Below, in pieces: positions 24,729-58,949 of a DNA stretch of 64,000 nucleotides; the first letter of the stretch is position 1; every line of letters begins with the position of its first letter. This DNA is from Cavenderia fasciculata (taxonomy: Eukaryota > Evosea > Eumycetozoa > Acytosteliales > Cavenderiaceae): contig NW_004457735.1 in assembly GCF_000203815.1 (NCBI RefSeq), positions 2,356,001-2,420,000 on the forward strand, given 5' to 3'. The notes beneath the pieces were generated by a model. The model worked only from the letters and a program-made list of their open reading frames with translations, was not told the DNA's origin and searched no databases. A program made the translations under genes and the position numbers.

Positions 24729-27700
24729 ATGGTTAAAGATTTCTTAGCAGAGGGAAGTCAAGCAGGTCAAACTTTGCTTAGACTTGTCAGTCGTGGTAAT
24801 GCCATCATAGCAGAGTTGTTGCGTTTGAGTGCTCACATCCCATCGGTATTCAAACTCGACGATAGAAATGAAGCAAGAAAGTATCAAGACATTCTCATGG
24901 ACTTTAAATATCTCTCCAATCCAGATTACTTTGAAGCAAAGATTGAAGATAATAGAGTATGTCTTACACAGACACACAACATATCACTGAATAGCTAGTT
25001 AGCTAGTGTATATACTTATATATATATATCTCTACACTCTTATTTAGGAATTAGTTGATTTAGAAGCAGAATTTAGAGAGAATCATATTGATATATTGGT
25101 TAGATTCTATCATTTATTCGAAAGTGTCTACAAGTACATTAAAGATTTAGAGAAATATCTTATCGATGTTGAAAAAGGTTTCTATATTCATCTTACTGTT
25201 GAAGTATGTATACAAATAATATATATGACATAGACAACATGTGCATAGACTTATTTAATAATCATTGATTTTAGGGAATTTTAATGAATGGAGATGGAAA
25301 ACAATTAGTATCCGAAGCTATTTATTTATATGGTGTCATGTTGATATTGATGGATAATCTTATTGAAGGACCTGTTCGTGAACGTATGCTTATTTCATAT
25401 ATGCGTAACAAGGGTCCAGTTGATTTACCATTCATCGATGATGTATGCAAACTTTTCAAGAGCACTGGGTATCTCCCCACCAACCCAAAGAGACCAGCCA
25501 ACTATCCAGAAGAGTACTTTGCTCGTATTCCCATCCCACAAACCGTTTTATCAATGGTTGTCGGTCGTTTAACATCCGATGATATCTACAATGGTACACA
25601 ATCATTCCCATTGCCAGATCATCGTAGTGTTGCTCTATCAACCCAAGCTTGTATGCTCTATGTTATTCTTTATTTTACTCCTGATGTTTTACAAAACAAA
25701 ATGGTATGTAAACTTGAAGCATTAACATGTTAATGATCATCAACCTAACCTCTTCTTTCTTTCTACTATATAGTCAACAATGAGAGAAATTGTAGATAAA
25801 TATTTCCCAGACAATTGGGTGATTGCATACTTTTTAGGGTTTACAGTTGATTTATCGGTTGTATGGGAACCATACAGAGCAGCCAAGACTGCTTTGGCCA
25901 ACACGACCACTCCCCAAAACATTACCTATCAACAACAAAAGTTTTGGAAGGATGTTGATATTTTAAATAGACAAGTTCAATCACTTCTTGTCGAGGGTTT
26001 ATTGGTTGAAGAATATATTATGGATAACATTTCAAAGATTATTGGTACAATTCGTTCTTGTAATGTTACAATTAGATGGTTAATGTTACGTATGTATTTA
26101 AAAAAAAAAAAAACAATATATTATATATTTGTATTTATTTATTTATTTTTCCTTTTTTTTTTAGATACTAATGCAAGTACAAAGAAATTAAGAGATTTAG
26201 TATCAAATGGATCACAAGATGAAGTTTTACAATTATTATTAAATACAGCACAATTGGAATTTGTTTTCAAGAATATATTCCAGTCGTTGCTCGACACTAA
26301 ACAAACTAGATGGGAAGAGAATAAGAAATTGGCAAGCGAGAGTATGAACGAATTGGCAGAGTATTTCTCTGGTGAAAAGGCATTGACCCGTGTCAAAAAG
26401 AATGAAAATCTACAGAAATGGTTTGGTGAAATCTCGGCCAAAGTCAACTCTCTCGACTATGAAGACAACACTAGTACTGGTAGAAAGATTCAACAACTCA
26501 GTCTTGCACTCGAAGAGGTTGAACAATTCCAAGAAATCGATTCATCCATCCAAGTACGTCAGTTCCTCGTCGAAACCCGTTCCTTTTTGACAAAGATGAT
26601 CAAGATTGTCAACATCAAGGAAGAAGTGTTGGTCAACCTCTCGGTTTGTGCCGATATTTCATATGCATGGGACATTATCAACAACTATGTCGAGCAGATG
26701 CAAAGAGGTATCAAGTCGGATCCAAAGTGTGTGCTCAAGCTCCGTGCCACTTTCCTAAAGTTGGTATCGATTCTCGATCTTCCACTTGTTCGTATCTCCC
26801 AATGTGCCTCACCAGATCTTCTATCCGTCTCAGAATACTACTCAAGTGAATTGGTTGGTTATGTAAGAAAGGTATTGGAAATTGTTCCAAAATCAATGTT
26901 TATCATCTTGAAACAAATCATTGATATGCAAACAAATTCAATTCAAGAATTACCAACTAAAGTTGAAAAAGAAAGATTAAGAGAGTAAGTTGAAAACAAA
27001 AACAAAAAAGAAAAAAAAGAAAAAAGAAAACAAAAATTAATTACTTTCTTTTATTTTATTTTATTTTATAGTTTTGCACAATTAGATCAAAGATATGAAT
27101 TAGCAAAAGCAACCAATTCAGTTTCAGTATTTACAGAAGGTATTTTAGCAATGGAAACCACTTTGGTAGGTGTGATTGAAGTTGATCCCAAACAATTGTT
27201 GGAAGATGGTATTCGTAAAGAGTTGGTATTACAAATTTCAATGGCAATGGACAAGACATTGGTATTTAGAAATCAAAAGAATTCAAACGATGAGTTACAA
27301 TTGAGACTCAAGGAATTGGCCAACATTTTAGATGGTTTCCGTAGATCCTTCCAATACATTCAAGACTATGTCAACATTCCAGGTCTTCGTATTTGGCAAG
27401 AGGAATTCTCACGTATCGTAAACTACTATGTCGAACAGGAATGTAATCAATTCCTCAAGAAAAAGGTATATGACTGGCAATCCAACTATCAATCTGTTGC
27501 CATTCCAATCCCACGTTTCCCAACCGTCGATGCAGCATCAGTCACCATGATTGGTAGATTGGCTCGTGAACTTTTAAATCAAACCTCTTGTCGTACCACT
27601 TTGTACCTCAACCAAATCGGTTGGTTCGAACCTCAAACCAGCAAGGAGTTGGTTGGTATCAACACTTGGTCACTCTTGCAACAATCGGTTGGTATCTTTG

Positions 27701-29609: not shown

Positions 29610-30110
29610 CGTGTATCTCTATTTGATTGAGTGAATGAATTGGTCATCATTGTAACAGATCTATATTCTTTATTTGGCTGTTTCATTTTAAAAGTTGTAC
29701 TCAAATTTTGGGTTGGAAAAGATCTTATCATAATAATAATAATAAATTATATTAATAATAGACAATGCTCCTCAACCTCCATCCAAGCTCAATCAATTTG
29801 GAATAATAATAAATTATTATTACAACCATGGTGCTATTATGATCATGGACGTCCAAATAAAGAATAGAAACAAAATTACTTTAATTAATTTTGTCGTCAC
29901 TAAGTAGACAAGCTTCGAAAGCATTGAGAGCCAAGACGAGATTTCTAGTATAAGCGGAAAAATGAATAATTCTATTTTTAATAGATCTGTCGTGTATGTA
30001 TAAAAGGAAATATTACCTTCCTTCTCATTAATATCAAACAAATAACAAACAAACAAATACAAACAAATACATTCAATTATATATTATATTTAACAAAGAC
30101 AACAAAAAAG
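29610..30110. other. Spacer with possible coding remnants
   Basis: 500 bp between the coiled-coil gene (minus) and the oxidoreductase (plus). Stretches at 29745-29865 (plus) and 29878-29990 (minus, KNRIIHFSAYTRNLVLALNA) look protein-like but have no start or splice context. The 100 bp before 30111 are A+T-rich promoter sequence. Confidence 0.35.
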
Positions 30111-31343
30111 ATGAAGCAAATAGTTATCACTAAAAACGGATCATATGATGTATTAAAGGTAAAGGAATCGGCTGACCCAGTAACAGGTGAGGGTCAAATC
30201 AAGATACAAGTAAAAGCTGCTGGTTTAAACTTTGCTGAAATTATGGCTAGACAAGGACTGTAAGTTGATTTGTAGTATTGGATCATATATATATTTTGTT
30301 ACTGACTCTAAAGTATTGCGTTGCATTTCATTTTAGATACCCAGATGCACCACCACTTCCATGTGTAGTTGGATATGAAGCAGCTGGTATTGTAACAGAG
30401 GTTGGACAAGGTGTTGATAGTGTTAAAGTTGGTGATAGAGTTATTGCTCTTAGTAAATTTGGTGCACACTCTGACACCATGATCATCCCACACTATATGG
30501 CTGTTCCAATGCCAGAACATATGTCGTTTGCTGAAGGTGCTTCGATTCCAGTTAACTTTATCACTGCCTATCATATGTTGTTCAAGGTGGCTCGTGTTCA
30601 ACCAGGTGATAGTGTACTCATTCATATGGCAGCTGGTGGAGTTGGTGTTGCTGCCATCCAACTTTGCAAGACCATCAAAAACGTAACCGTCTATGGAACT
30701 GCCTCTGCTAGCAAACACGACTTTATCAGAGAATTGGGTTGTCATCATCCCATCGATTATAATACCAAAGACTATGTCAAAGAGATTTATGAAATCAATA
30801 AGGATTTACCAGAGGGTAGAAGAGGGATTGATATCATCCTGGACCCACTAGGTGACTCCAAGAAGAGTTATTCACTTTTAAACCCTGCTGTTGGCAGACT
30901 TGTCACATTTGGAGCTTCAAATTTCCTTTCTGGTTCTACAAGATCCATTTTTAATGTTTTAAAGAATTATTTTAAGGTACTGTAAACCAAAACAATACAA
31001 AACAAGACAAAATATTAAACTATATATTATTAATCAATTATTTTCTTTTTTATTTTAGATTGCATCATTTAGTCCATTATCATTAATGAGTGATAACAAG
31101 ATGGTTGCTGGTGTTAATATTGGACACATGTTCCAGCCAGAATCATTATTACATATGTTACAAGAAGAAATGAAAGATATAATGCAGTTGTGGGTAGATG
31201 GTAAAGTTAAAGCTATTGTCTCAAAAGAATTTACATTTGATGATGCAGGTGAAGCTCATCGTTATATGGAAGAAAGAAAGAATATTGGTAAAATTATTTT
31301 GGTTCCAACAACTGCTGATCTTACTCCCACATCATCTCAATAA
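30111..31343 (+). CDS. Quinone oxidoreductase-like MDR protein (VAT1/zeta-crystallin type)
   Basis: Exons 30111-30259, 30337-30976 and 31059-31343 give about 357 residues, the usual length for zinc-free medium-chain reductases. The catalytic domain has AGLNFAEIMARQGLYP and GYEAAGIVTEVGQGV. The Rossmann domain has the NADPH motif AAGGVGVAAIQLCK (residues near 155), preceded by GDSVLIHMA, and then DPLGDSKKSYSLL. No structural or catalytic zinc cysteines are present. The sequence around KYADLS is absent and the C-terminal part (GVNIGHM, DDAGEAHRYMEERKNIGKIIL) fits VAT1-like members. These enzymes reduce quinones or enones with NADPH in the cytosol; the natural substrate is unknown. The 3' end faces the decarboxylase gene with only 90 bp between stops. 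Confidence 0.88.
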
Positions 31344-31433
31344 ATAAGAAATATTATTATGTATATTAAATATATAAAACAATAATATTATTGTAGTACA
31401 GTGGGACGTGATTTATTAATATTAATCTTTTGA

Positions 31434-32895
31434 TTAAGAGAAAAAGGCAATCTTTTGTTCAATAGTTTCACCCTTTTTAATTTGTTTGATGGAATCGTAA
31501 GTCTTTCCATCGACACTTTCAACGGCAAAGATGGGTGGAGCAAGTCTGAGATTGTAATGTGAATAGGAAGAGTAGAAATAGGCACCAGAGTCGTGGACCA
31601 TGACATAGTCACCCTTGTTGATGGTTGGAAGGAGACGTTCCTTGACGAGGAGATCAGCAGCAAAACAACATGGGCCAGCAAGATCCATGACCGAAGCACC
31701 GTCCTTGCCGTCTTGGTAGACACCAGTCGAGTCAAATACGGTGACACGGAGCTTCCAGAGTGGGTGTTGGTAGATGGTACGGATGTAGAGGTTGGCACCG
31801 GCATGAACGACGGCAATATCACGACCGCCAGACTTTTTGGCATATTCCACTTGTGAAATAACGACACCGCACTTGGCCCAATATGAACGACCAAATTCAG
31901 AGATCAATGTAAAGGAACCGTCAAAGAGCTCTGGAATACGTTCCTTGAGATGAGTGGAATAGTCGGTAAAGGTTGGCTTGTCTTGTTCAGTGTCAAAGTT
32001 GACCGAGAGACCTCCTCCGACGTTGACGTGTGTGATTTGATTGTTGGTGAGACCGTTGATCTCCTTGACCAACGACATCACCTTGACGACGGCGTCACTG
32101 GTTTGGTACATTTCAAAACCTTGTGAACCGACGTGCAAGTGGACACCACGCATCCAGTTGTATTGTGTATAGTAAGAGATGATTCTTTCACGACTGTCAT
32201 CCAAACCAATACCAAACTTGGAGGTTGGGACACCAGTGCTCAAATCTGCATATTTGCCAGCTTGTACTTGTGGATTGACACGAATACCAATCACCAAAGT
32301 TGATTTCTTCTTTTCATCCAACTTTTCAACGATCTCTACAACTCGATCCATCTCTTGAAAGTTATCAACATTGATTACAACTCCCAAATTAATGGCATAT
32401 TCTAATTCTTGAATGGTTTTAATTGGTGAATCATAAATTATTTTCTATTAAACAAAAAAGGAGGTTGATCAATTAATTAATTAGCGCGATAGTCAGTTGA
32501 CTTGTTTAATATTTATACTTACATCTGGTGTAAAACCAGCCAATTCTGCAATCTTTAATTCTCCAAATGAAGCAACTTCAGCACCTAATCCACTCTTTAT
32601 AGCTTCCTTTAATAAACTCTAAAATAATTAAATGTTATGTTATGTTATGTTAGTGACATGATTATTAATGTTTATGATTGTATTGAATAGGTACCATAAC
32701 AGGGTTTGATTTAACAGCCATTGTTTGAATACCATTGAATCTATCGTTTGATTCCTTTGCCAAAGCTCTAAAGTGATCCAAGTTGTATACCATGATGAGT
32801 GGTTCATCACCAAAGATATTATTCTTGATTGCAAGATTCATTGCATCCTTTTTCCATTGTTTACAATCAACTGATTCTGAATAGGTTGTATCCAT
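31434..32895 (-). CDS. PLP-dependent decarboxylase, DAP/ornithine decarboxylase fold
   Basis: Exons 32895-32695, 32618-32523 and 32444-31434 give about 435 residues. Fold-type III features: MAVKSNPV with the PLP lysine, GAEVASFGELK, INVDNFQEM, IRVNPQVQAG, STGVPTSKFGI, GVHLHVGSQ, NVGGGL (phosphate loop), EFGRSYWAKCG, the catalytic-site GPCCFAADLL (CxxxD-like cysteine from the partner subunit) and DSGAYFYSSYSHYN. HVGSQ, TSKFGI and the SGAYFYS pattern are nearer diaminopimelate decarboxylase (LysA) than eukaryotic ornithine decarboxylase. The product could be a diamine or lysine-like compound. Which substrate is used cannot be decided. It probably acts as a cytosolic homodimer. The start MDTTYSES follows an A+T-rich leader. 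Confidence 0.82.
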
Positions 32896-33547
32896 TTCTA
32901 TATCTCTCTCTATTTATTTATATATTTATCTACTTTTTATAGATATACAATTGTTAAACCAAAACAAACAAAGAAAGAATCAACACACCCTCTCACCTGA
33001 CCTGATATTTCTCAAAAGTAATTGTAGGGAATTTCGATAAAAAAATTAAATTCGAATACCGACGCGGGTCCCGAGACAGTGATCCCCAGGCAAGCTTTGA
33101 TCGAAAGGTCATGACTGAAGCGAAAAACATTGTGTCAACCCGAGATTGAAAATATCTTGGTATCATAGATACGTAAGTATTTGTTTGAAAGGTTTTTAAA
33201 AAAAAGTATCAACAATAACTATTGATGTACCTTTTTTTATTTTTATTTGTTGTTGTTAAATATTACAATTTTAATGATCGTGTTTTGGATCAATGATTAA
33301 ACATTTGGGTGGGAGGTGAGGAGGCAACTATTATAATAATACGATGACAATATATATATTGGAACGATGATTAAAAAAAAAAATAGAGAGAATTTAAAAT
33401 ATATAGGGGGTGCCCGACGGAGGCTCTCTTTTTCTTTTTCTCTCTCTCTCTGTTGTTGTGTTGTTGTTGTTGTTTTTAGTTGGTTATTATATTTGTTTGT
33501 TATTTGTTGTTTGTTTTTCTTTTCTCTCTTTCTCTATCTCCATTGTT
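32896..33547. other. Spacer containing a structured G+C-rich island
   Basis: Between two minus-strand genes. Most is A+T-rich, but 33055-33175 is strikingly G+C-rich (see the ncRNA candidate). A pyrimidine-rich tract follows at 33420-33460. Confidence 0.5.
33060..33173. ncRNA. Candidate structured RNA
   Basis: A G+C-rich block in an A+T-rich spacer with nested complementarity: CGGGT (33065-33069) pairs with ACCCG (33138-33142). Inside is TGATC-GAAA-GGTCA, a 5-bp stem with a GNRA tetraloop (33098-33111). Just outside lies GTATC-ATA-GATAC (33160-33172). No ORF explains it. The family is not recognised, and the strand cannot be assigned. Confidence 0.35.
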
Positions 33548-34939
33548 TTAGTTTGTTTTTGATTTAACCCAATCGACATATTCATCTAAAAGGACTGGCC
33601 AAGCTCCATTCTCATCATAGTTTGAAGTATCTGGTGCAATAACCTTTGCAAATTCAAATACTGAAAGCCATTGATCCATATTTAATCCTCTATATGTTGT
33701 TTGCTAAAAAAATATAATAACAACCATTAGTATTGATTATTTGTTTGATATTTGTGATTGATTCACTTACATGATTTAATAAATAATCTACAAGTTTATC
33801 AGCATGTGGATATTTAAGTGTCAATATAAGTGACATCATACTGCAAGCACTCTCAATTTCCAGAATTTTGTTTTGTGGATTCTCTTTGGCAAACAAGAAT
33901 GCAAATCTATAAATCTCTTTAAAGTTATTTTGATCTTCCAAATCCTTTTTAAAGTTTGGTAAGTATGTTTGTAACTTTTGTAATGAATCGATTCTAAAAA
34001 ATAATATATATATATTAGTAATCAAAATGATTATAACCATTTCCTTTCTTTTTCTTTTTTTAAATTAAATTACCCTAATTTTAATAAACCGGTTGTAAAT
34101 TCCTTTTTAGAAAAGAAACCCATACTTTGAGCATTAAGGTGCCACGCCAATACTAATACAATAACATCTTCAGGTTCAACACCCAAATCTTTACACAATC
34201 TTTCAATACCCTCTGGTCCAATATTTGTTGGATCTTCTGGGTCTGCATACTGATCATAAAATTCTTCTATTCTCTTATTTTTATCTCCTCCATCCTATCA
34301 AAAATTAAATTAAAAAAAAAAAAAAAACAGTTAATATTAATCCTTTAGTAATGTTTAAATTTTATAGCTTCTCGTTGTCGTCGTTGTCGGATTGCTATAA
34401 ATAGAATCTATTCTATTGTCTATTTCTATTAGTATGCATACAGTATTCTTTTGTACCTTTTCATTTGATGACTTTGGTGATGTAGCATTGGTGTTTGATG
34501 TGTTTGGCTTTGATACAGGGTTTGCAGCAGCTGCAGTTGCAGGTGTGGAGGTATATGCAGAGGAAGGTGATGTCGTACTGTCTTTTGTATTGTTATTTTT
34601 ATAAGATGATGATTCTATTGTTACAGTATCTTGACGATGTGATGTTGTTGTCGATGGTGTACTATTTGTTGCTGGTGTTTCGTCTAGTAGTAGTAGTAGT
34701 TATCAACAATAAAAAAAGGTTAGTAATCGAGATTAAAGTTCCTTTCAACTAAAGGTGTTATTGACCATCTCTGTCTATCCGTCTTCCTCCTATTCCTCTT
34801 CCTATTTGTGACGCAACTCAAACTCTTTTCTATAATCTGGAGAATGAGTAATGTGTATTCAATAACTACCTTTAGTTTTACTAGCTTTACCTTTACCATT
34901 TTTCTTTTGTGATTTCGACTTTGATTGTCCTCCTCCCAT
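33548..34939 (-). CDS. Dcn1-like cullin neddylation factor (DCUN1D3-like)
   Basis: Exons 34939-34870, 34683-34457, 34294-34074, 33993-33771 and 33703-33548 give about 298 residues. The C-terminal 190 residues are the PONY/potentiating-neddylation domain: DKNKRIEEFYDQYADPED, IGPEGIERLCKDLGV, VLVLAWHLNAQSMGFFSKKE, FTTGLLKLGIDSLQKL, and the diagnostic NYDENGAWPVLLDEYVDWV. Dcn1 proteins act as scaffold E3s that help Ubc12 attach Nedd8 to cullins. The N-terminus MGGGQSKSKSQKK is a textbook N-myristoylation signal plus basic cluster, as in human DCUN1D3, so membrane location is inferred. Between lies a Ser/Thr/Asn-rich linker of about 90 residues. The first exon holds only the lipidation leader, joined in phase 1. 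Confidence 0.88.
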
Positions 34940-35292
34940 TTTATCTTCTTCTTCTTCTTCTCTATTAGATAGACTATATATATATCGGTATAAGTTGTTT
35001 GTTGTTGTTGTTGTTACTCCGAAAGTGTAATAGTAAATATTTATTATCCTATTTGATGATGATGAATCTTTAAACTGCTTCTATTGTCGATTATGCGCAC
35101 TACTACCTATCCTCTTCAGTGTAACTGTTATTGTTGTTATTGTTGTTGTGAATGAATGCTAGTTTATCCCTTGCACTGATATTACCAATTCTACGATTGA
35201 TTGTTGTTGTTGATGGTTACCCAAAAAATAATTTTAGTGAATAATTTTCAATGATTGGTTACACCAATAATAACTCTCATTATAGTATCACG

Positions 35293-35323
<31 letters not shown>

Positions 35324-35714
35324 TCATATGTACGACGACGATAAATAAGCAGCTGATGATTGATTGATATCATATTTGTCAAATTTATTAATTGAATGAA
35401 TTGAAGATGATCGATAACATTGCATAGATTGAAAAAGTCAGTCTTAAACAACAAGATAGACAACACTCATCATTCACTGTTGACTGTTTTACTGCCTATA
35501 GACAAGTGTCTCATTGAGTATTCATTATTCGCTATTCTGTTTTACTACTAGTGTTTTGTTATTCAAGAAGAGGAGAGTTTTAAACACATGTTAACTTTTT
35601 AAGAGAAGAGGATGAGGAGGACATTGTCATCGCAATCTAGATTCATTTCATTGGTGAAGGTTGTGTTGAATTTATTTATATATGGTGAATGGATGAAGAA
35701 CTAACTGAATTAAT
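34940..35714. other. Spacer, no gene seen
   Basis: Promoter region of the Dcn1-like gene and 3' flank of the copper chaperone gene, both on the minus strand. It contains TTG and AAT triplet runs (for example 35298-35321). Nothing else is recognised. Confidence 0.5.
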
Positions 35715-36113
35715 TTAATCATTCTTGATTGAACTCTTCTTTCCAGTCTTTTGAATAGATACAAGTAATTCATCGGCATTGAATTTGGTAGAGTTACAGG
35801 TGACAACCTTGGTAGTAAGATCAGCATTAATATCTGAAACACCCTCTATTGATATGAGATATGATATGTATTTATGTATAAATGATGTTAGTATCGATCT
35901 AATTCAATCGAATCAATCACACCTATCCTATGTTATAACATACCAAGCTTTGACAAGATGGCAGTAACAGCCTTTGAGCAACCTCCGCAGGTCATATCAA
36001 CGTTGAATTTGTACTATTGTATCATATGATAGGAAGAAGGATTAAATTAATATCGTAGTCATTTTAATAATCTTTGTTTGTTTGTTTATTTGTTTGTTTC
36101 TTACAGTAGTCAT
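35715..36113 (-). CDS. atox1: Copper chaperone (ATX1/ATOX1 type HMA protein)
   Basis: Exons 36113-36105, 36013-35944 and 35845-35715 encode about 69 residues, the size of Atx1/ATOX1. The metal site is DMTCGGCSKAV, the MxCxxC motif binding one Cu(I). Beyond it come the expected beta-alpha-beta-beta-alpha-beta elements (KLEGVSDINADL, TKVVTCNSTKFNADELLVSIQKTGKK), with the conserved KTGK loop lysine that stabilises the copper site. Such proteins carry cytosolic copper to P-type ATPases in the secretory pathway. The first exon is only 9 coding bases (MTT), so simple ORF calling misses the gene. The tail KSSIKND is slightly longer than usual. Confidence 0.9.
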
Positions 36114-36661
36114 TTTATTTATTTATTTTGTTTGTTGTAGTATTAATATTGAAATGAATCGATTTCCTTTGTTGTTGAAAAGGTGTCCATCAAAAAAAAA
36201 AAGTTTTTTAATTGAATTGCAGTAATTAAATGATTCTCTCTCCTAACAACAGTTGTTCCAACCAACTTTAAAGTTTAACTTCTACTTCTAAATGTAGTAG
36301 TGACAAGAATATTTTATTTTATTTTAATAAAGAGAGATTCTCAAAATTTCAAGTGCCCCCTATTTTTGATTGTATAGAGGCAGCGTTGTTTGAACCTACC
36401 TATCTGCCGTGTGCAGCTTGCACATTTTATTATTTTATTTAATTTTATTATTGTCATGATTAATTAATACTTAAACTCACTCAACAACACTCTCCTATTA
36501 TTATTTTTATTATTATTATTTTTATGTGTATACTAGTTATTAAAGTTATGTATTTGTATTTATTTAGATTCTGGTGACATATATATTTATAATTATGACG
36601 TGATCATCATAGATAGAGTATTATTATATTATATTTTATATTTTAAATTATTATCAAAAAA
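36114..36661. other. Divergent spacer with hairpin island
   Basis: Promoter region for the chaperone gene (minus) and the RING/GTPase gene (plus). It is A+T-rich except for 36350-36425, listed as an ncRNA candidate. Confidence 0.5.
36350..36426. ncRNA. Candidate small RNA with two 3' hairpins
   Basis: TATTTTTGAT (36361-36370), resembling an Sm-binding site, is followed by a GGCAG/CTGCC stem (36379-36383 with 36404-36408) and immediately by GTGCA-GCT-TGCAC (36411-36423), then A+T-rich DNA. The order recalls the 3' part of a spliceosomal snRNA, but I cannot match it to U1, U2, U4, U5 or U6. Confidence 0.3.
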
Positions 36662-39547
36662 ATGAAGTGCGAAGTGACAACTTCCACACATAATAATCTG
36701 TTGTGTTTGAATACAGATTCACCTCTTTATTGCTGTGGATGCAATATATTTATTTGCAAGAATCATTTTGATTCCGAGTGCCTTAGTATTGGTCACCAAT
36801 GCCTTGACTACAAAGAAATAGGTCCGATACAACAGTTCTTATTACCAGCACACCAACAACTACTCGAAAGTGATGATTCAACTCGTCGTGAGGTGAATGC
36901 ACTTGAGAAACAGAAGTCTGTAAGTGTTTCACCTGGTGGAGGTAAAGAGGTGTCCTGCACTGAGAAGGGACGTACAAGAATGGTCAAGATTGGAGTCATC
37001 GGGCCATCAGGCGCTGGCAAAAGCAATTTCATCCACACAGTATACAAGATCCTACGGGATGATGGATGGACAACCTCCGACAGACCACCCATTGTCAAGA
37101 GATCTCACACATCATCACTATCAACCACAAGCGATATCATATGTTACGAGTTGGAACTAAGTCACATGAATGGAGATGTAAATACCCCTATCTATTTAAA
37201 TATAAACATTACATTGGTCAATGATTAACTTGGTATACTTTTTTTTTTTTATTATAGCATAGATATATTTCTATTTTCGATACAGAAGGAACTGATGGTA
37301 CCGATTCGAATCTACTATTCAGTACAATGACACAAGCCGATCCCAATAACCCAGATTGGGCCAAGTCCATCAAAGATAGGAAGGTTTTTGTCGATCAGTG
37401 GTTCTCAAAACTTATTTACCTCGGCAGTAGCGTTGTTGTGTATGTTTTTGACAACCCGAGAGAGCTAGAGACACTGTTCTCAGCATTGGCAAGCATTGTA
37501 TGCCCACTTGAATCAAGAGCAATCAACAACCCATATAAACCACATCTAGTTATATTATTCAACAACCAATGTAGCCTTGTCAAAGGGGATTACTTTAAAA
37601 GTGTTGATTACCTCGAAAAAGCAAGTGATAACATTAAAAAGGTTGCCTCATTTTTCATGACCTGCCAGTCCTTTTCCTTACCAAATGTTAAAATGGATCC
37701 CAAAAGCTATATCGACACTATGAAGGAGGTAACAAAATGTTTAATCAGCAAACAACTGGTCGACATGGACTTGTATATTGAACACAAGTTAGCCGAGTTC
37801 GTTGGTATGATCAATCAAGACCCACAACGCACCATCCTTGACCACTTTTCTATAATGAAAACAAAACCAACGGCCATCTTTCAATACTTTGAATACTTGG
37901 TTCGTTGTCTTGAAAAGGAACAGTCTCTTAGGTTGAATTTGCACCAGTCAACAGAAAAGCCACAGTGGGTTGAAGTGTACGAACATGCCCTCGACCATAT
38001 CAAAGATTGTTTGGACTTTGAGGACCCAAAAATAAGACAAGATTTGGTTTGGACTGATTTCCTTATTTTCCAAAAGATTACTTGTTGTGCAAAGAATCCA
38101 GACGACGGTTATTCCTGCGAACTGTCTCTCCCCCAACATGGTCGTAGTCACATTAACTTCAAAACAAGTTGGGAAGGAAATTTTGAATTTCCATGTAATT
38201 GGGAGAGGGTTGCTCTTCTCACAAATCATTATGACTCATATCATCTACAACAACAACAACAGCAACAACAACAACAGCAACAACAAATTTTACAACAACA
38301 ACAACATACAGAGGATATAAATTCTTTGCCTGTCTACAATAATTCACCCAACATAAAAACAATTGAAAAAGAACTTCATTACATCATCATAATCGAACTC
38401 CCAGGGGTGGACATTAAAGATATTTTGGTGGTCAAAAGGGGTAGCAAGTTATCTATATCTGGTACCTCGAGAATCGACCTTCTTTTACTTGGGGACATCC
38501 AATTGGATTTATCTTCATACCCCCAAACAATATATAAAAAGGAGATCCAGTTGCCCAGATTTGTGGGCAAGGAATACCAAACCAAACTCCAAGATGGATT
38601 GTTCTACCTCTTATTCCCAAAAGCCCACTCGTCTGTCCCCCTTGAAACCTTTGTTTCAACCTCGAAGAAGGACTTTGTCGACTACCCAATTTGTACTCTG
38701 GTGTGCGCATCTTGCATTTGGAGAAGGCCAATCGACATGAGAGCGTGCGGACATTCTTTTTGCGATGATTGTTTCAAGCGCTCAAAAGACTCGGAATGTT
38801 TAATGTGTAGCTCTTCCAACGATTGGATCTATCATTCAGTGTCTCCGTTTTACTACAGCAAAAGCAAGGGACTAGTCCCAAAGAAGGATTTCAAATTTGT
38901 AGAGTCAATAGAGATGAGTCTAAGAAAGGAATGTAAAAAACCGATCAAAGCCTACCATTTCTTTGACTACTTTGAGCTCGAATTTCGAGAATATCCTCTC
39001 CATACAATCTTATCAATAGCATTGGCTTTTGGTCAAACAGATGGAGTCATTTCCTATGTAAAAAATAAAGTGCCGTGGGATATGGGCCACAAAGATGTGG
39101 TCGATTCACTCATTAAGATCATACCCGACCAACCTTTGTGTAACGCCAAAAAGCCTTTGTTGTTCCTACAAGCTGATGGTCATGGTCACAGGCTCTACTT
39201 GGATGGTTTTAAAAACATTTCTGTTCTTTCAAACAGTCGAGATGTTGTTCGAGAATTATTTACCCAAGATTTGTTTGACAGAATTAAAACCAAGAGCGAG
39301 GTGAAAACCTTGCTCAGTGGTCAGATACAACATCACCATCCAATGTCCCTCATGTTTTACTTTAACATTGAAGAAATATACTTGGATCATATTAATACTA
39401 GCATAGAGAATACTCCTATTAAGGTTTCTTTTGCAAGGTCAATTCAATCGGTCGTCAAAAAATGGTTCAAAAAGAAAAGCAAACAAAATCATCGTAAATT
39501 CAATCACTTAATCAGTGATGATAATATTATTAGCAGTAATAATAATG

Positions 39548-39643
<96 letters not shown>

Positions 39644-39981
39644 GCATTATTAATAATGATGAAAATAATAATAATTTGAAATATCCCATTATTACGATTA
39701 GGAGTAAAATACCATTTTCAGATCTCCCCAAACATATAATTTGCAACATGATCAACTTTTTACCAACATTTGGATTATACAACCACAGGAAAAGGGAATT
39801 TGAGGCCACATCAATTCACGAGCTTGTTCCCTCCTCGAATGGCCAAATCGTCCAAAAATTGCGACTTCACAATATCAGATCGTATGATTACGAATCCTTA
39901 ACAGTGACTCCAATCAGCAAGCACAATAACAAACCAGAATCTTTATTTATTGGAGCAAAGCAGTTCCAAAATATTCATTAA
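36662..39981 (+). CDS. B-box / P-loop GTPase / alpha-crystallin / RING multidomain protein
   Basis: Exons 36662-37177 and 37258-39981 give about 1079 residues. Order: (1) N-terminal B-box-like Cys/His cluster (CCGCNIFICKNHFDSEC, residues 23-40). (2) P-loop GTPase-like domain with GVIGPSGAGKSN (residues 112-124) and IFDTEGTD (switch II, near 178). (3) Gln run, then an alpha-crystallin/Hsp20-like domain (YIIIIELPGVDIKDILVV ... LSISGTS ... DGLFYLLFPK, about residues 550-640). (4) A RING finger, CTLVCASCIWRRPIDMRACG then HSFCDDCFKRSKDSECLMC (about 655-700). (5) A 380-residue C-terminal region with a long Asn run. RING and B-box together suggest a ubiquitin ligase; the GTPase and chaperone-like parts suggest NTP-controlled handling of damaged or foreign proteins. 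The NKxD base-recognition motif is not evident. Function unknown. Confidence 0.85.
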
Positions 39982-40061
39982 AGAAAGTAGTGAGCTAAGC
40001 ATTTTAATCCTAAATATAATTAATAATATATTTCATTTTTATAATTTATTTGAGTACATGC

Positions 40062-40765
40062 TCAACTCACCCTTAAATTAATCCCAATTTCCATTTGGAA
40101 CTCCCATACCTTACGATATTGAAAGCTTTCTTTTAGATAGCTTTCTGAGATTCCACCGTTGGGAGATTTCAATTCCTTTAAAAGTTGTGAGTAGAAATCC
40201 TCTTCCTCCATATCAACCAAAACTACCATTTGCAACTGGTTTAATGGATTGATAAACCATCTTGAAACTTGAAAAGCTTGGAATGCATCCAAAACAAAAT
40301 CCTCAATTACGTTTCCATCAAACAAAAACATGTTGTTTGGTCCTTCTTTTTAGTGTTTGAAGAGAATAAAACTATGATTGATTTGCTGGACCAGCTCTAT
40401 GATTTCGATTCTATCTTTTTTTGGAATAAATGTTCCTTGATAGGGATCCGAAAGTAAATCTATAAACTTGTATACTATATTTATGTCTTGATTGGATTCA
40501 TATTGTTTGGTTGATCTAAGGACACGTAATAGGGAGTCCTTTCTTTCTTTGGGTGCATATGCACTATCGATGAATGATTGTGAGAATCTTGATACTCTTC
40601 CTAAAGAATTTCTAATCTTTTGGATATTTCTAGTTTGGGCTGAAAGTAAAAAATGAGCATATTATAGCTATATTGAGCTCAATATTCTGATGGAATGGTC
40701 AACTTACCTTTTAACCGTTCGAGATCTTTAGATTGGTCTCCTTTTTCAGAGCTTGTCTGTGACAT
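40062..40765 (-). pseudogene. Unknown gene interrupted by one in-frame stop
   Basis: Exon 40765-40708 (MSQTSSEKGDQSKDLERLK) joins exon 40639 onward in phase. The frame reads helical, charged sequence (NSLGRVSRFSQSFIDSAYAP, KDRIEIIELVQQINHSF) to a TAA at about 40350. It continues in the same frame after the stop with equally protein-like sequence (KEGPNNMFLFDGNVIEDF, FQAFQVSRWFINPLNQLQMV) to 40062. No splice sites bypass the stop. So it is a recently broken gene, a read-through case, or a base error. The total would be about 215 residues. Family not recognised. It converges on the 3' end of the RING/GTPase gene. Confidence 0.5.
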
Positions 40766-40958
40766 AGAATATATGTTTAATTAGATTTATAGACTATAGT
40801 CTAGATGATTTCTCTCTTTATCTTATCTTTCGACTTTTCTAAAAAAATAATATATTAAAATGCGCTAGTGAATTTAATAATTATAATAAAAATATAAATA
40901 TTTATAAATTAAAAAACAATTCATCCTTCATTCTGAGAGTGACTACCGTTCCAGTTTA

Positions 40959-43900
40959 TTATTGGTTATTTGATATTTGTTGTTGTTGTCTATTTTTAAC
41001 GATACCTTGTTTTGTATATTCATACATCATAATTGAACCACTGACATGAACATTCAATGAACGAAGTACACCCAGTTGTGGGATTTCAATGCATTTGTCT
41101 AAAAGGTTGATATATTCTGTGGGAATACCTTCCTTTTCCTTGCCAAGCAATAATACACACTTGTTGGGGAACTGGAACTCGGTGATACAGTTGGATGTAG
41201 AGGTTTGTTCAATACCAAGTAATGAGTAACCTTCTGATTTCTTGGACATCAAGTAGTCCGTAAGGTTCTCTTCGCTAACCTCTTCAATTGGCAACCAACG
41301 CTCGGCACTTACTGAAATCTGTTGGAACATTACTTCCTTCATGATTCTTCGGTTGGAAACAACCAATGATTCAATGTTGAAAATTTCACCAGTACGTGCA
41401 ATACCTGCCAAGTTTGGAATCTTATCGACAAAAGTGGCAACGATAATGATACTCTGTCTAGAACGTTGATCCATCAAGTTGTGACGAGTTTCTTCTTCAA
41501 TATCAGCCCATGGTAAAATCTTCTTTTGGTATCCAGTTGGTTGACTCTCTATGAAATCATCGGCATCTACATCCGACTTGTTATCCTCTTCTGTTTCTTC
41601 TGCCTTGTCAACTTCAAGAGCCTCTCTAATTGCATCTGAAATCTCTGGCATCTTTGATTTCTCAAACAAGTATTCACGTAATTGTGCTGTCAATGGTGAT
41701 TTTCTCATTACATCATCAACTAAATATTCAAATATTCCCTAAAAAAGAAATCAAATATTAATACAAGTATTATTGTGATTATTATTTTTTCTATAACATA
41801 CAGGAGCACAAACTTCATTATGATTTAATTTTTCAATTAATGGAATATCATAATACAAATTCTTATAGTCACAGGCAGTTTTAAGGTCTTCAGCTTCATC
41901 AGTAGTAGATGTGGAGATTGAAAGGGCAGATGCAAGTCTTGACAATGACTTTGAGGTTTGTGTATTGTGGGTGATATACCATTCGAAATAATTGAGGTAT
42001 TCCATAAGAGGAGCATCAATTTTTTCGGCCAAATGCTTTGAACCACGTAATCTGAGAACTAAACTGATCGATGCACCTCTGACAGACATGTGATTGGAAC
42101 AACACAATGCCATAATCTTTTTAAATATCTTATTACATTGTTCCTTGTCATCTAGATATAAAATCATTGTACCTGCTGTAATAACTACACTTGTTACAAT
42201 ATCACCTCTTAAATTAATTTCATCCAATAATCTAAAGATAAATAAAATAAAAAAAGAATGTTAAATGATGTAAAGAAAGATTTGATTCAACTTGACATAC
42301 GGTAAAAAGTGAGATTGAATAGTTTGAGGATATCTTGTAATGAAACGGATAATGAAAATATTGATATAACGTCTGGTAGATGGTAAATTAAACAAACACA
42401 TAACATCAACCAATTTTTGAGCAAATTCAGTAACCTCTTGTTCATTTGCTGGTGTTACATAAGGAGATAATAATGCCAATGCTTGCCATAATCTAATCTA
42501 TTAAAATTGGAAAAAAGGAAATAAATTAATATAATTAATAAAATTAATGAATGTTTTAAAATTGTTTGACCTACTCTTCTTCTATGTGGAATAGTATTAA
42601 TTAAATGACGATCTGATCTTTGGAATTCTTTGGAGAAAGCATATTCCAATAACTCAAGAATAAATGAATTGATAAATTCTTTGTATTGGCTTTGATTTGA
42701 AAGAGATGAATCCAATGCCTTTGCTCCCATTGATTTTAAGAATGTACCAACCACAGCTCTTGAGAAAACATCCTTTAATGGAATACTACCAACACCAAAT
42801 TTAGCCTCATCTCTATCATTTTCATATGATGAATCAATTGAAAAATCAAATACAAAACTATTAAATGTTCTGTTGAAAGAAATAGAAAAAAAAATAGTTT
42901 AATATATATACTTTTTGTTTACTTTTTTTTTTTTAATCTACATACACAATTGGATCATAAAATGATTGATCAGATTGTTCCCAATCATCATCCTTTCTAA
43001 TTGGACCATAAAGAATTGATTGTAAGATTTCATCTTTGTAATGTGAGGCAATGGTTGGCATTTCATTCCAAACAAGAGTTGTTTTCATTGTCAAGAGATT
43101 CATCAAACCGACGGCACCATCAGATTTACCCAATAAAATGCTATAATAATGTTTCAATAGGGTGTGATGATTTAATGATTCGTCGTCCCATGAGGATGGC
43201 TCGACGGAAAGAAGATTTGGTGAGAATGCAAATTGAACAAATGCAGTCATTGATGTGACGTTGGTGTCGTTGGCAGCAGCCCAAGCACTCTCCATCAAAT
43301 TAGAAAGAACATCGACACGATAGTCTCCTTTTTTGTTAAACTCTTGTCTGACAAATGGTAACAACATATGTGCACTGTTGAGAATTGGCTTGATGAAATA
43401 GACATTGGCACCACCTACTGCGTCAATAAGTGATTCAATGATTTCATTGGCCTCATCTTGATCCTTTGCAATTGATACAATGCCATCAACTTGTTCCAAC
43501 ATTGATAAAATATTACGAACCAATCTCCACTTGTTCTTCATAAAATATTGTTGAACTGCTCCCCATGATCGGCTAAAAAAGAATAATTAATATTTGTTAT
43601 TTTTCTTTGTCCCTCATCTCTTCTTTACATACGAAGTAATATCATTTGAAGTTTCAATATCATTTGGACGAGTACAAGTTAAACTATAAATTGATTTAAA
43701 GAGTGATTGTAATTGATCCTTTTGAACGACTTGATTTCTAAATTTGAATACTCCATAGAATGATTGTAAAACATTGATACGTTGGATCTGACTCTTGAGT
43801 GTACGTGATGATCTACCAACACTGTCCAAACGTGCAGTTAATACTTGAATATATTGGTCAATCTTTGGTGCAACATCCTTGTCAGTGTTGAATGCATCAA

Positions 43901-46516
43901 CAATAAATGCAACCAATGAAATCAAAGAATCTCCAAGTTCCAATTTAACAATATGATTTTCAATTGTCTCCAAAATATCATTCTTTATCAAATATTCAAT
44001 AAATTGATTCTTGAATGAAATAAATTCATTTGTAATAATTGTCTTTTGTTCTAAATAGAAAATAAAAAATAAAAAATAAATGATTTAGTACCAAATGAAA
44101 TGTTTTAATCTATTCATTGTCTTTTTTGTTTTGTTTTTTTTTTGTTTACTTACCAAATGAAATTGAAAAAGATAATATAGAAGATAAAAGAATAATAGTT
44201 GAAATTGAATTTGGTAAATCCAAAGATGATGATAAAGATTGAATTAATTGTTTAGAGATTGGTTCCAACTTTTTGTGAATTAATTTTTGGAACTCACTGT
44301 CTTGCAAATAGGTGGATTGTCTTGCCATCATGTAAAAGGAAGTTTTGAGTGTGATATAGGCGTCGCCATTATCAGTCAATGCAGCATACGACGATGAATT
44401 GATGAGTTGGTCTGTATGTGTGTCGATATTATTCATCAACCATTGATCACCAAATGAACTCAACCATTGCTTGATCAAGTTTGCGTATTTTGGCAACACA
44501 TGAATTTGAACTGGAAGTTGATATAAAATCTTACTAACATTGATAAAATCCATATCCTTTTTATCTGTCAATTTTGTAATAATTTTAATAATATATTTTA
44601 ACATTCTAAATCTTGTTGTTTGATTTCTATAAAAAATAAACAAAAAATATATATATATATTAATAAATGATTATTCCTCTATTTTCTTCTATCTATTCTC
44701 TTGTATCTATTTCTATTCTCTTACAATCTACGACAATGATCAAATAAATGATTAACTTTATCCATAAAAGAATTATTGATAAATTCAATACCAGGAGTTG
44801 AAGAGATGGAATGAACGAAATCCAAAATACAAAGAGTAAACTCTTTGAAACGTTCCTCTTTGGCCAAAAAGGTGAGAAGAGTGCTGACAAAGTCACTCTT
44901 GGCCTTGGTAGAGGTTAAAGAGTTAAAGTAGGTGGTGAAAAAGTTCATAATAGCTTGATGGATGGCACTCTCGGTGATACCACGATAAAGAATGGGTGTG
45001 ACAATAGCATTGATCAATGTACCAAAGATAAAAGATTGTGGTAAACATGCAATGTATGGTGAGTTCATAATACCAATACATTGAGCCTTGATGACAGCTG
45101 GATTCTCGTGATTGATAGTTCTTTGAAAGAGAATGTCCAACCATTCAAATGCCAATGCCTTTTTGTTACCTTTGTGTGATTCAATGACCAATGCATCGAT
45201 TTCCTTCCAAACGGGAAGAATCAAATGAAGAGTAAATTCACCCAATGTTTCATAGATGAGAAAGTATAAATCCCAATACTTTTGTAACTCTTTACTATCA
45301 CTCTTACTCCAATTGAAATATCTAGTCCATTCTAAATGATCATCTAAACCTTCTCTTTCAATTGATAATTTAATAATACGTTTTAATATATATCCTGAAC
45401 GTTTACGAATTAATCCATCATTATCAATAAATCCATTCTACAAATAAATTTGGTAAGTTAATTAATATCATCTAATCTCAATCGATTTATATATATTTAT
45501 ATATTATGACATACAATTAAATGTTTCCAGAAAATAGTATTTAAACGAAGATCCATTGATGGTTGAAAGAATACTTTAAATAATTTGGACAAGATTTTAA
45601 AGGCATCTGAACGAATGTTAAACTCTGGTTGAGTCATCATTAGATCGAGAATGGTGTCTCTAACCAATTGATGCTGTTGAGATGTAGACGATTGGATAAT
45701 GGCAAGCAAGAGTGAAGTGATGACAGAGTGTCTCAACTCTGAGTTTCCAGACAATAAGATCTTGTTACAAGTATCAAACAATGCTGTATGGAATGGAGTA
45801 CCAGACAATTGTTGTCCCTTTTCTACTGAATCTTCTAATAGTATAGATCCCAACATACATGCAACCATATGATTAATATATTGTTTTGTTGATGAAGTTG
45901 ATGGAGTAGTGGTATTGGTGGTAGTGGTGGTAGCGGTAGAGGTTGATGGGATATTATTGGCAATCTCTAAATTGAATTGTAATGATTCCAATACTACTTG
46001 TTGAAGTTTTTCAATGTTTACATTCTCTTTGGTTTTAATTAAATCTTTGATATGTTGACATAATAATGTTACCAAGATTGACATGTCACTAGATGAAGAT
46101 GAGTCATCTGATGATACTTGTTGTTGTTGTGGTAAATCATCATCACCAGACAAGAAAGATGTTGAAGATAAAGAAGAGATGTATAACAACTTGATGTAGA
46201 TATTTTCAATTGAACGGTTGATAATAGAGACATCAACGATCTTGTTGTCAGATGTAGTAAGCAAATGATAAGCACCATGTACGAGTAGTTGAATGTACAA
46301 TGGATCTGACTTTTGACTACTAGCTACTTGTTCACTGATAGCATGTTCGATATCAGTGAGCAGAGTAATAGGCGAGTCATTATAGAGTGCAAACGTAGAT
46401 TGGATATAAGGTGTTTGGATGATATTGATAGTTGCAGAGTCAACTTTTTTAAGATTGTATTGAGTAGTTAAAGAATCTGCGAATTGCTTTAGCAATCCTA
46501 ATATCTTGTTACTCAT
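40959..46516 (-). CDS. tRNA (guanosine-2'-O-)-methyltransferase, TRM3/TARBP1 type
   Basis: Nine exons (46516-45515, 45437-44725, 44626-44154, 44050-43633, 43572-42946, 42869-42575, 42497-42301, 42231-41802, 41738-40959) all join in phase to about 1644 residues, like human TARBP1 (1621). The C-terminal 170 residues are a SPOUT methyltransferase with its three motifs: NLAGIARTGEIF (motif 1, catalytic Arg), CVLLLGKEKEGIPTEY (motif 2) and IPQLGVLRSLNVHVSGS (motif 3). The remaining 1400 residues are helical, HEAT-like repeats. Trm3 methylates G18 in the D-loop of tRNAs; the long helical part binds substrate. No poly-N tracts interrupt it, except Ser/Thr-rich sequence near 45900-46130. It lies 448 bp downstream of rps26 on the same strand. 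Confidence 0.93.
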
Positions 46517-54541: not shown

Positions 54542-55437
54542 TTAAGTTAAATAATTAATTAAATATTACTAGTTTAGTTTGACAAAAAAGTAAAAGAAGA
54601 AATATAAATAATGAATTGATGTTGATCTCTTCTTCTTCTTCTTCTATACTTAACTGCCTTTTTGCTTGTCTTCAATACATACACATTCCCAAATATTTAA
54701 ATCAATCACCAATACAAGATGGGTGCATGAATGGATGGATGCATTGGTTGGGTTAGCCAATATAAACACACCACACAAACAACACGATAGTTGGAACCAC
54801 ATCAGCATCAAGAGGGTGCATCATCCAATAAGAAGGGGTCCTCCTACCCACCATATTCTTTTTTACAAAAAGAGAGAAAAGAAAGAGATGTGTAGTGATG
54901 TACACTACAACCCAAGTTCAAATCGGGTTAAATCATATCATCCAATACACATGTGTGATCTAATCTAGTACCTGATTTGACAAAGTTGTAACTTCACCAA
55001 TGCGTAGTACTCTAGAAATACTAATATAATTACTACAAAGCTAGAAAGAAGTGATAACAACTTTACCTTGGTAGACTCATACAAGATTTAAAGATAGAAT
55101 AATCTCAGCTCGTTGCCCAATATTTGATAATAAAAACTAATAGTTGCATAGATTTTTTTCTTTCGACCTGACTTTTGTCGATAGCTTGGTAATCACAAGA
55201 CGTCACTTGCCCTACGATCCTCATTTTTTATTACCTCTCACCTTTTCTTTGTACAAATAACTTTACACATTACATTGTATACATCTTCTTTTCTTTTTAA
55301 AAACACACAAAAAATAACAAATACATTCTCGATCGAAATAGATTAGATATACTGCTGTATATATATTTTATTTATTGTACATACACTTCACAACAACCAA
55401 TTCTTAGATAAATCTTTAAAAACAAAAACTTTGTTTG
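54542..55437. other. Divergent spacer, no gene seen
   Basis: Promoter region for the secreted-protein gene (minus) and the BTB gene (plus). CTT repeats at 54630-54645. No RNA gene or convincing ORF. Confidence 0.5.
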
Positions 55438-57677: not shown

Positions 57678-58949
57678 TTATAATGAATAATTTAATTGAT
57701 TGGAATAATTAATGGTTGGTCTCAAAGTCGATGGAGTTGGTTGCATCATCATATTGTTGGCCATATTATTATAGTTAAAGCGCTGTTGTTGTTGGTTGCT
57801 ATTATTATTATTATTATTCACTGGTAATGTGGCAACAGATAGATGATCATCCGATTGAATGGGTGAGGTGTTGGAAGAAGAGGATGGACCTCCTGTAGAT
57901 TGCTCAATCTGGTGACTTGCAACTTGCTCCTTTAGCTTTTCAAGACTTCTACGTCTAAAATTAATGAACCAATTGGAAACTTGGGCAATGGATTGACCAG
58001 ATTCTGCAGCCAATTGTCTTTTGACATCCATTGGTGGATATGGATCATCGAGATGATTGATAACCCATTGCAATAGAACAGACTTTGATGATTTGCTAAG
58101 AGCACCAGAAGTGGTTTTAGTCTTTGAACGGACGGATCCAGAGGTTGCAGGTTCGTACGACGACATCTTTAAAACAGCAATATAACGTCCAGAAAAGTGG
58201 TCTACCTCTGAAAAGAGCTGTTTGGTGAGTGCAGTGGTGGTGGCAAGTGCATGCATATACTTTTCCAAATACTGCTTAACAATGATGTTGTTGTCTGGCG
58301 AACCCATCATTTTAAGGAACAAACTTTTAAACAATGCATAGTCTGGTAGACTCTTTGCACTAAAATGCTTTGGATCAACAATAATCGAATCCCACAAAGT
58401 ATTGAATAATCTTTCAATAATGTCATCTTGGTATTCATTTTGATTGATGTTTTGTTTTTTAACAGTTGGTATTGCCATTGGAGGTTGTTGTTGGAATGGA
58501 GATGATGATGGTGACGATGATGATGATTGGTAGTCTTGTTGCTGCTGCTGTTGTTGATAAAATGAAGAAGAACTGGTTGGTAATCTGGTTGATGCTAATA
58601 CAGAAGAAGACATTTGAAATGGAATAGGTAATTGTGGATGTCCACTAGTACTACTGTTGGCTCCATTAGAAGAGAATACAAACATTGGAGGTTGATGTGA
58701 ATTGGTGAATGGTAACGATGACTCTGTTTGAAGAATCGATGGTGTAGGAGGAGTCATTTGTGTAAAAGAGGATGACATAGGCACTGGTAGATGGATCTGG
58801 GAGAAGGGAATCAAAGGGGAATTACGAGTAGGAGTTGACGATGACGACGACGAAGGTAATGGCAAAAATGGACTATTACTATGAGTTGTAGTTGAAGTAG
58901 TAGAGGAAGTAGATTGTTGATTTTGTAATTGATATAAAATTGACTCCAT
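57678..58949 (-). CDS. TALE-class homeodomain transcription factor
   Basis: A single exon of 423 residues. The homeodomain is at about residues 285-345: KSVLLQWVINHLDDPYPPMD, KRQLAAESGQSIAQVSNWFI, NFRRRSLEKLKEQ. The PYP between helices 1 and 2 is the three-residue loop extension of TALE proteins (KNOX, PBC, MEIS, TGIF), and WFINFRRR is recognition helix 3. An upstream helical region (DDIIERLFNTLWDSIIVDPK ... LKMMGSPDNNIIVKQYLEKY) may be a KNOX/MEIS-like dimerisation module. The N-terminal 150 residues are Ser/Pro/Gln-rich. It is presumably a nuclear developmental regulator. Confidence 0.9.
   Translation of the reverse strand: MESILYQLQNQQSTSSTTSTTTHSNSPFLPLPSSSSSSTPTRNSPLIPFSQIHLPVPMSSSFTQMTPPTPSILQTESSLPFTNSHQPPMFVFSSNGANSSTSGHPQLPIPFQMSSSVLASTRLPTSSSSFYQQQQQQQDYQSSSSSPSSSPFQQQPPMAIPTVKKQNINQNEYQDDIIERLFNTLWDSIIVDPKHFSAKSLPDYALFKSLFLKMMGSPDNNIIVKQYLEKYMHALATTTALTKQLFSEVDHFSGRYIAVLKMSSYEPATSGSVRSKTKTTSGALSKSSKSVLLQWVINHLDDPYPPMDVKRQLAAESGQSIAQVSNWFINFRRRSLEKLKEQVASHQIEQSTGGPSSSSNTSPIQSDDHLSVATLPVNNNNNNSNQQQQRFNYNNMANNMMMQPTPSTLRPTINYSNQLNYSL

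What the first reader, a model, noticed from the sequence alone, without database searches (positions are those of the whole stretch)
36662..39981. Unusual fusion: B-box, P-loop GTPase, alpha-crystallin/Hsp20 and RING in one protein
Seen directly: Cys/His B-box-like cluster, GPSGAGKS P-loop with DTEG switch II, an Hsp20-like beta-sandwich (ELPGVDIKDI ... DGLFYLLFPK) and a C3HC4 RING in that order. From knowledge of the families, B-box plus RING means TRIM-like ubiquitin ligases, and Hsp20 domains bind unfolded proteins. I know of no described family with this exact set. Inference: a nucleotide-controlled, self-contained unit that recognises aggregated or foreign protein and tags it with ubiquitin, possibly a cell-autonomous defence or proteostasis system of amoebae.
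Basis: partly seen in the sequence, partly recalled or inferred. Interest (0 to 1): 0.8.

Follow-up and report, generated by a model that had tools for sequence, protein, structure and literature searches.

The report
Amoeba GBP-GTPase, chaperone and RING fusion
A social-amoeba gene encodes one protein that joins a GTPase resembling the immune guanylate-binding proteins to a zinc finger, a small-heat-shock (chaperone) domain and a RING finger of the ubiquitin-ligase type, and it is one odd member of a gene family that occurs many times in the same genome.

Summary
The gene at 36662-39981 (one 80-base intron) encodes 1,079 residues with a Cys/His cluster, a P-loop GTPase, an Hsp20/alpha-crystallin domain and a complete C3HC4 RING, in that order. 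Hsp20 is supported by four comparisons (HSP16.5 E=8.4e-6; NCBIfam 1.1e-5). The genome is almost certainly Cavenderia fasciculata.

Best reading: a GBP-type GTPase/RING scaffold, akin in design to RNF112, with a built-in holdase that catches misfolded or foreign protein for ubiquitination. Anatomy and family are shown; every activity is inferred. The G4 motif is eroded (NNQ). Other dictyostelid genomes could not be searched. New variant of a known kind.

The parts
36662..37177 (+). Exon 1 (172 codons): Cys/His cluster, linker, GTPase G1/G2
   Evidence: open frame and splice site seen directly
37178..37257 (+). Intron, GT...AG, 80 bases, phase 0
   Evidence: exact in 4 of 8 paralogue-guided spliced alignments, overlapped in the other 4
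37258..39981 (+). Exon 2 (907 codons plus stop)
36689..36796 (+). B-box-like Cys/His cluster; my pairing H10-x4-C15, C24-x2-C27, C32-x2-H35, C40-x4-H45
   Evidence: residues listed; family members at the same place match B-box models; no Pfam B-box match in this gene
36977..37776 (+). GBP/atlastin-type GTPase domain, about residues 106-345 (interrupted by the intron)
   Evidence: own exon-2 half; paralogue, whole domain
37001..37024 (+). G1 / P-loop GPSGAGKS
37279..37290 (+). G3 / switch II DTEG
37777..38241 (+). Helical stretch and C..C..H..H module shared with sister paralogues and with a canonical GBP of the same genome
   Evidence: alignment; BLAST against 24 family proteins, (window E=0.002, sisters L033 1.8e-10, L031 5e-10)
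38247..38306 (+). Gln-coding triplet repeat on the 5' side of the Hsp20 segment
38341..38661 (+). Hsp20 / alpha-crystallin domain, residues 534-640; absent from the paralogue rows that reach the RING
   Evidence: absence
38704..38808 (+). RING finger C3HC4, residues 655-689
38842..39381 (+). C-terminal region at the place where some paralogues carry patatin; shared with L037; patatin kinship not shown
   Evidence: negative tests
39537..39675 (+). Asn-rich triplet repeat in the tail

Best explanation
The gene encodes a GBP/atlastin-type GTPase with an N-terminal B-box-like zinc finger and a C-terminal RING, with an alpha-crystallin (Hsp20) domain inserted just before the RING. Most likely the GTPase and zinc finger make the protein self-assemble, perhaps on damaged membranes or aggregates (inferred from GBPs and atlastins); the Hsp20 domain holds exposed or unfolded protein (inferred from Hsp20 proteins); the adjacent RING then ubiquitinates what is held, or the protein itself (inferred from RING proteins). 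It is one member of a family whose members share the zinc finger, GTPase and RING and differ in the part that goes with them (patatin phospholipase, Hsp20, or neither), which suggests a common sensing/assembly core with exchangeable client or effector modules. Shown: the anatomy, the family, the GTPase class, and that Hsp20 is absent from the paralogues read as far as the RING. Inferred: every activity.
Against: G4 of the window is NNQ, where L041 keeps NKTD, so guanine specificity or turnover may be weakened. The RING lacks the hydrophobic residue between its first two cysteines and the Arg after the last one that many active RINGs have (recalled criteria; residues), so E2 binding is unsure. 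Pfam GBP does not match the window. In Foldseek the window model has no match at E<=0.001 (best 0.036). The Hsp20 stretch was not resolved by AlphaFold (pLDDT mostly under 30; no other row covers it). No I-x-I tail motif follows the Hsp20 domain (motif recalled). The search also failed to find the genome's ordinary Hsp20 genes, so it could have missed a diverged Hsp20 in a paralogue. No expression or activity data. In RNF112 the ligase and GTPase activities were found unrelated, although efficient self-ubiquitination needs both parts in one chain (PMC12012479, passages); that argues against simple nucleotide control.
Confidence: 0.45

Rival explanations
1. Cell-autonomous defence factor: a GBP-like GTPase coats microbes or broken vacuoles and the RING tags them; the Hsp20 domain binds microbial surface or proteins rather than misfolded host protein.
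For: GBP class of the GTPase; many, divergent and partly tandem family members, a pattern often seen in genes under conflict (inference); patatin lipases in some paralogues. TRIMs and GBPs are named as likely restriction factors in D. discoideum (PMC5758549, passages).
Against: No infection or expression data. The likeness of the patatin part to a bacterial defence lipase is not specific: three of four ordinary patatins of the same genome match the CBASS lipase model too (L060 1e-49, L062 9e-26, L061 4e-24; L059 only 2e-4) against 7e-23 to 9e-35 for L039, L041, L042, L043. No SMODS-family cyclase was found in the genome.
Confidence: 0.25
2. A decaying family member: a pseudo-GTPase / weak RING scaffold in which Hsp20 serves only for oligomerisation, with no enzymatic role.
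For: Eroded G4 (NNQ), atypical RING contact residues (criteria recalled), no recognisable patatin domain, long end branch of 1.43.
Against: 907 codons without a stop, all eight RING ligands, P-loop and DTEG kept. Long branches are usual in this family: the median end branch is 1.38.
Confidence: 0.2
3. Membrane-remodelling GTPase (atlastin/RNF112-like) with the RING and Hsp20 as regulators of its own turnover.
For: Atlastin, Sey1 and RNF112 stand close behind GBPs in the structure lists; the canonical GBP frame in a family cluster has a long hydrophobic stretch (seen directly).
Against: I noticed no transmembrane stretch in the window protein, but ran no predictor.
Confidence: 0.1

Closest known systems
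RNF112 (ZNF179, neurolastin)
   Different: RNF112 has an N-terminal RING followed by GTPase and middle domain (PMC12012479, passages); no B-box-like finger and no Hsp20 (recalled); the window RING is C-terminal to GTPase and Hsp20
Guanylate-binding proteins (GBP1, 2, 5) and atlastins
   Same: Fold of the GTPase domain; DxEG switch II (motif of GBPs recalled)
   Different: Pfam GBP does not match the window; G4 is N[KNR]x in most family rows instead of RD (RD recalled); extra zinc fingers, Hsp20, RING
TRIM proteins, TRIM23/ARD1 in particular (recalled)
   Same: B-box-like finger, RING and a GTPase domain in one chain
   Different: Order differs, no coiled coil shown, GTPase is GBP-type and not ARF-type; D. 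discoideum is said to have a single TRIM, a TRIM37 orthologue (PMC5758549, passages)
Small heat-shock proteins (HSP16.5 type)
   Same: Alpha-crystallin domain over its whole length
   Different: Embedded in a large protein, no I-x-I tail; below the NCBIfam cut-offs, no PF00011 report
CHIP/STUB1 (recalled), a ligase coupled to chaperones
   Same: Idea of coupling client holding to ubiquitination
   Different: CHIP borrows Hsp70 through TPRs and has a U-box; here the chaperone domain is built in

Membership tests
GBP/atlastin (GB1/RHD3) GTPases | G-domain fold of the class | tested here: met
GBP/atlastin (GB1/RHD3) GTPases | Pfam PF02263 match | tested here: not met
   not among the 25 listed of 61 families; 17 matches in the genome, none at the window
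GBP/atlastin (GB1/RHD3) GTPases | G4 motif RD (recalled) | tested here: not met
   NNQ in the window; NKTD in L041
GBP/atlastin (GB1/RHD3) GTPases | GTP-dependent dimerisation and hydrolysis | not testable with these tools
   needs protein
TRIM family | RING, B-box, coiled coil in that order | tested here: not met
   Zn finger at 10-45, RING at 655-689, GTPase between
Hsp20 family | Alpha-crystallin domain by sequence | tested here: met
Hsp20 family | Alpha-crystallin fold in a structure model | tested here: inconclusive
   segment not resolved, pLDDT mostly under 30
Hsp20 family | Pfam PF00011 over its cut-off | tested here: not met
Hsp20 family | C-terminal I-x-I motif (recalled) | tested here: not met
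   residues after 632 read directly
RING finger proteins | Eight zinc ligands C3HC4 with proper spacing | tested here: met
RING finger proteins | Ubiquitin ligase activity | not testable with these tools
   needs protein
RNF112 family | N-terminal RING followed by GTPase and middle domain | tested here: not met
   RING is C-terminal
Patatin-bearing subfamily of the same genome | Patatin domain after the RING | tested here: not met
   hhalign probability 0.1; profile score -2.9 bits, best of 200 shuffles 2.9; no NCBIfam lipase match at E<=0.1

The most novel reading that the evidence does not exclude
This amoeba has evolved its own TRIM-GBP hybrids: a family of B-box/GBP-GTPase/RING proteins with exchangeable modules, and in this gene the exchangeable module is a small heat-shock domain, giving a one-chain machine that assembles under nucleotide control, catches damaged or foreign protein and ubiquitinates it.
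Probability: 0.3. Interest if true: 0.82.

Novelty: new variant of a known kind. Interest (0 to 1): 0.62.

Why it matters
GBPs, TRIM-type ligases and small heat-shock proteins are separate players in animal defence and proteostasis, and dictyostelids are used as a model for how these began. A review seen here in passages credits D. discoideum with one GBP and one TRIM. A related amoeba with 24 GBP-like GTPase modules, RING and patatin partners and one Hsp20 fusion would be a separate natural experiment in joining the same parts, and gives a single polypeptide in which holding and tagging can be tested directly.

Tried and rejected
Degenerate patatin in the window gene: suggested by position and by the alignment, but hhalign and a profile with shuffles do not support it for the window; L037 scores 7.0 bits against a best of 4.6 in 200 shuffles, which is weak. 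My notes call it a pseudo-patatin; that was before these tests. I now call that region 'of unknown kinship, at the patatin place'.

CBASS-type lipase: paralogue L042 matches the NCBIfam CBASS lipase (E=9.4e-35) and PADLOC effectors (best 3e-42), but three of the four ordinary patatins of the same genome that I tried match the NCBIfam model in the same range, and none of them or of the family reaches its cut-off of 200 bits; rejected as evidence of defence. PADLOC was not run on the ordinary patatins. No SMODS cyclase at E<=0.1.

Protein-database searches with the window protein returned nothing at E<=10, not even the protein itself or its paralogues, so they say nothing on distribution; the first was probably swamped by the Gln run. 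A search with the L038 core returned three proteins, all C. fasciculata, among the 7,995 candidates scored. Other dictyostelid genomes were not open to me. I made no call to the search for related loci.

Literature: none of the titles listed in eight searches is about this fusion or family (6 of 6 papers listed; 18: 20 of 50; 19: 20 of 172; 34: 20 of 37; 67: 10 of 15; 68: 15 of 43; 95: 12 of 27; 96: 6 of 6). The library lacks most subscription journals and holds no preprints. I saw passages of PMC8535579, PMC2474670, PMC8565484, PMC12012479 and PMC5758549 and listings only of the rest. Rfam over 30000-46000: no match.

Left out of the tree of 24 modules: two weak matches on C14 (709.7 kb and 1521 kb; E about 0.2), the degenerate middle module of P0001 and P0003 and the degenerate first module of P0002. 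The count of 11 places is my grouping of the loci; the searches score only their best candidates, so the family may be larger.

Full report
What is there. The gene runs from 36662 to 39981 on the + strand with one GT...AG intron at 37178-37257 and encodes 1,079 residues. Its long exon has 907 codons without a stop; the best of 300 shuffles of the same region gave 142. Guided by eight paralogue proteins, a spliced-alignment script puts an intron there in 8 of 8 cases, with exactly these borders in 4 of 8, two of which (L038, L039) come from unspliced frames. The two exons must belong together: the P-loop (residues 114-121) is in exon 1 and DTEG (180-183) in exon 2, and L038 and L039 carry both in one unbroken frame.

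RING: all eight ligands, C655 to C689, with C3HC4 spacing, although Pfam stays below its cut-off (E=0.0017). Hsp20: residues 538-632 match HSP16.5 at E=8.4e-6 across the alpha-crystallin domain, NCBIfam's archaeal Hsp20 and Hsp14 match at 1.1e-5 and 5.7e-4, below their cut-offs, and a profile of six Hsp20 reading frames from the same genome gives 18.3 bits where the best of 1,000 shuffles gives 6.1. hhalign agrees more weakly and for the first half only, Pfam PF00011 does not report it, and AlphaFold left it unresolved because no other row of the alignment covers it. Zinc finger: eight Cys/His at 10-45 by my pairing, but no Pfam B-box match for this gene at E<=5; one L040 frame is over the ANCHR-like B-box cut-off (5.3e-7), 4 of 26 rows match that model at E<=1, and one frame of the L044 gene is over the PF00643 cut-off. 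GTPase: P-loop and DTEG as described.

The family. Whole-genome searches with this gene and two paralogues found the same core many times. The three proteins found by name are from Cavenderia fasciculata, a dictyostelid, and their contig lengths (656888 and 3408800) equal those of contigs C10 and C21 of the window's genome, so that is almost certainly the genome. I put 24 modules from 11 places into a tree: the window falls in a clade of seven (100/99) with L037 as sister (95/85) and L031, L033, L034, L035, L036. Some genes hold two or three modules in a row (P0001, P0003). After the RING, four of the eight paralogue frames scanned carry a patatin phospholipase over Pfam's cut-off (L039, L041, L042, L043; E from 1.9e-11 to 1.2e-24). 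In the window and L037 that place is taken by a region they share; I could not show that it is a patatin.

Hsp20 is the odd part. In the alignment, 11 paralogue rows reach the RING and none has anything like the Hsp20 block; there the Cys/His module is followed by a spacer and the RING. L035 and L036 do not reach the RING in the frames I read. A whole-genome search with the Hsp20-RING-tail piece at E<=10 gave 7 matches, and the Hsp20 part matched only the window; that search also missed the genome's ordinary Hsp20 genes, so it is a weak test. The 24 PF00011 matches of the genome lie at none of the family's places. A Gln-coding repeat lies on the 5' side of the insertion.

A bridge to canonical GBPs. 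The genome has 17 matches to Pfam GBP at E<=1, at about ten places by my grouping; D. discoideum is credited with one GBP (PMC8565484, passages) and with one GBP and one TRIM (PMC5758549, passages). One canonical GBP (first part E=2.2e-20; second frame 8.9e-7) lies inside a family cluster on contig C10, and its C-terminal part is the same helical/Cys-His module as in the window's clade: of 24 family proteins, six match, L033 1.8e-10, L031 5e-10, L034 2e-9, L035 and L036 about 2e-6, window 0.002. This fits a local origin of the family from, or mixing with, a GBP gene.

How it may work. From established knowledge (recalled): GBPs and atlastins dimerise and assemble with GTP; Hsp20 domains hold unfolded protein and oligomerise; RING fingers recruit E2 enzymes. 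Put together, the most likely action is assembly through the GTPase and zinc finger, capture of clients by Hsp20, and ubiquitination by the RING some twenty residues further on. Each step is inferred. RNF112, the nearest known design, ubiquitinates TDP-43, and its ligase and GTPase activities were reported as unrelated, though efficient self-ubiquitination needs both parts in one chain (PMC12012479, passages), so nucleotide control of the ligase should not be assumed. Whether clients are host aggregates or microbial cannot be told from sequence; the lipase link to bacterial CBASS is not specific.

Verdict. A real and unusual fusion, in a family that seems more interesting than the single gene. 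I rate it a new variant of a known kind: each part is known, RING plus GBP-type GTPase is known from RNF112, and the built-in Hsp20 and the family's exchangeable parts are what I did not find described. Novelty is limited by the searches I could run: no other dictyostelid genome was open to me.

Noticed in passing
L041:2174-5533(+), L042:1479-4835(-), L043:3144-6311(+), L039:1953-5216(-): Paralogues with GTPase and RING followed by a patatin phospholipase; L041-L043 keep GGGx[RK]G and GTSTG.
   Followed up: partly
L038, L040, L044, L058 (contigs C10 and C21); P0001, P0003: Genes or clusters with two or three GTPase modules in a row, some modules degenerate.
   Followed up: partly
L064 and L040:5825-6766(-) (C10:535.3-536.8 kb): Canonical GBP gene with a long hydrophobic stretch and the family's Cys/His module at its end, inside a family cluster; about ten canonical GBP places in the genome.
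   Followed up: partly
L055:4618-6080(+) (C14:709.6-711.1 kb): A similar N-terminal Cys/His cluster next to protease-like frames (serine-protease look, by eye) that occur as several neighbouring copies; perhaps another family using the same finger.
   Followed up: no
L037:3578-5458(+): Sister gene: no DxEG is visible in the frames read, so its G3 may be lost or lie in a missed exon.
   Followed up: no
window 11873-13945(+): Rap/ran-GAP gene (E=5.5e-59) in the most GC-rich 2-kb bin (0.465; other bins 0.27-0.37).
   Followed up: no
window 25780-26988(+), 31434-32387(-), 40959-41708(-), 55435-56766(+), 57678-58949(-), 6405-7775(-): Ordinary neighbours by Pfam: strumpellin, Orn/Arg decarboxylase, SpoU methylase, BTB/BACK, KN homeobox, kinase with PH_3 domain (three of ten frames scanned had no match).
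   Followed up: no
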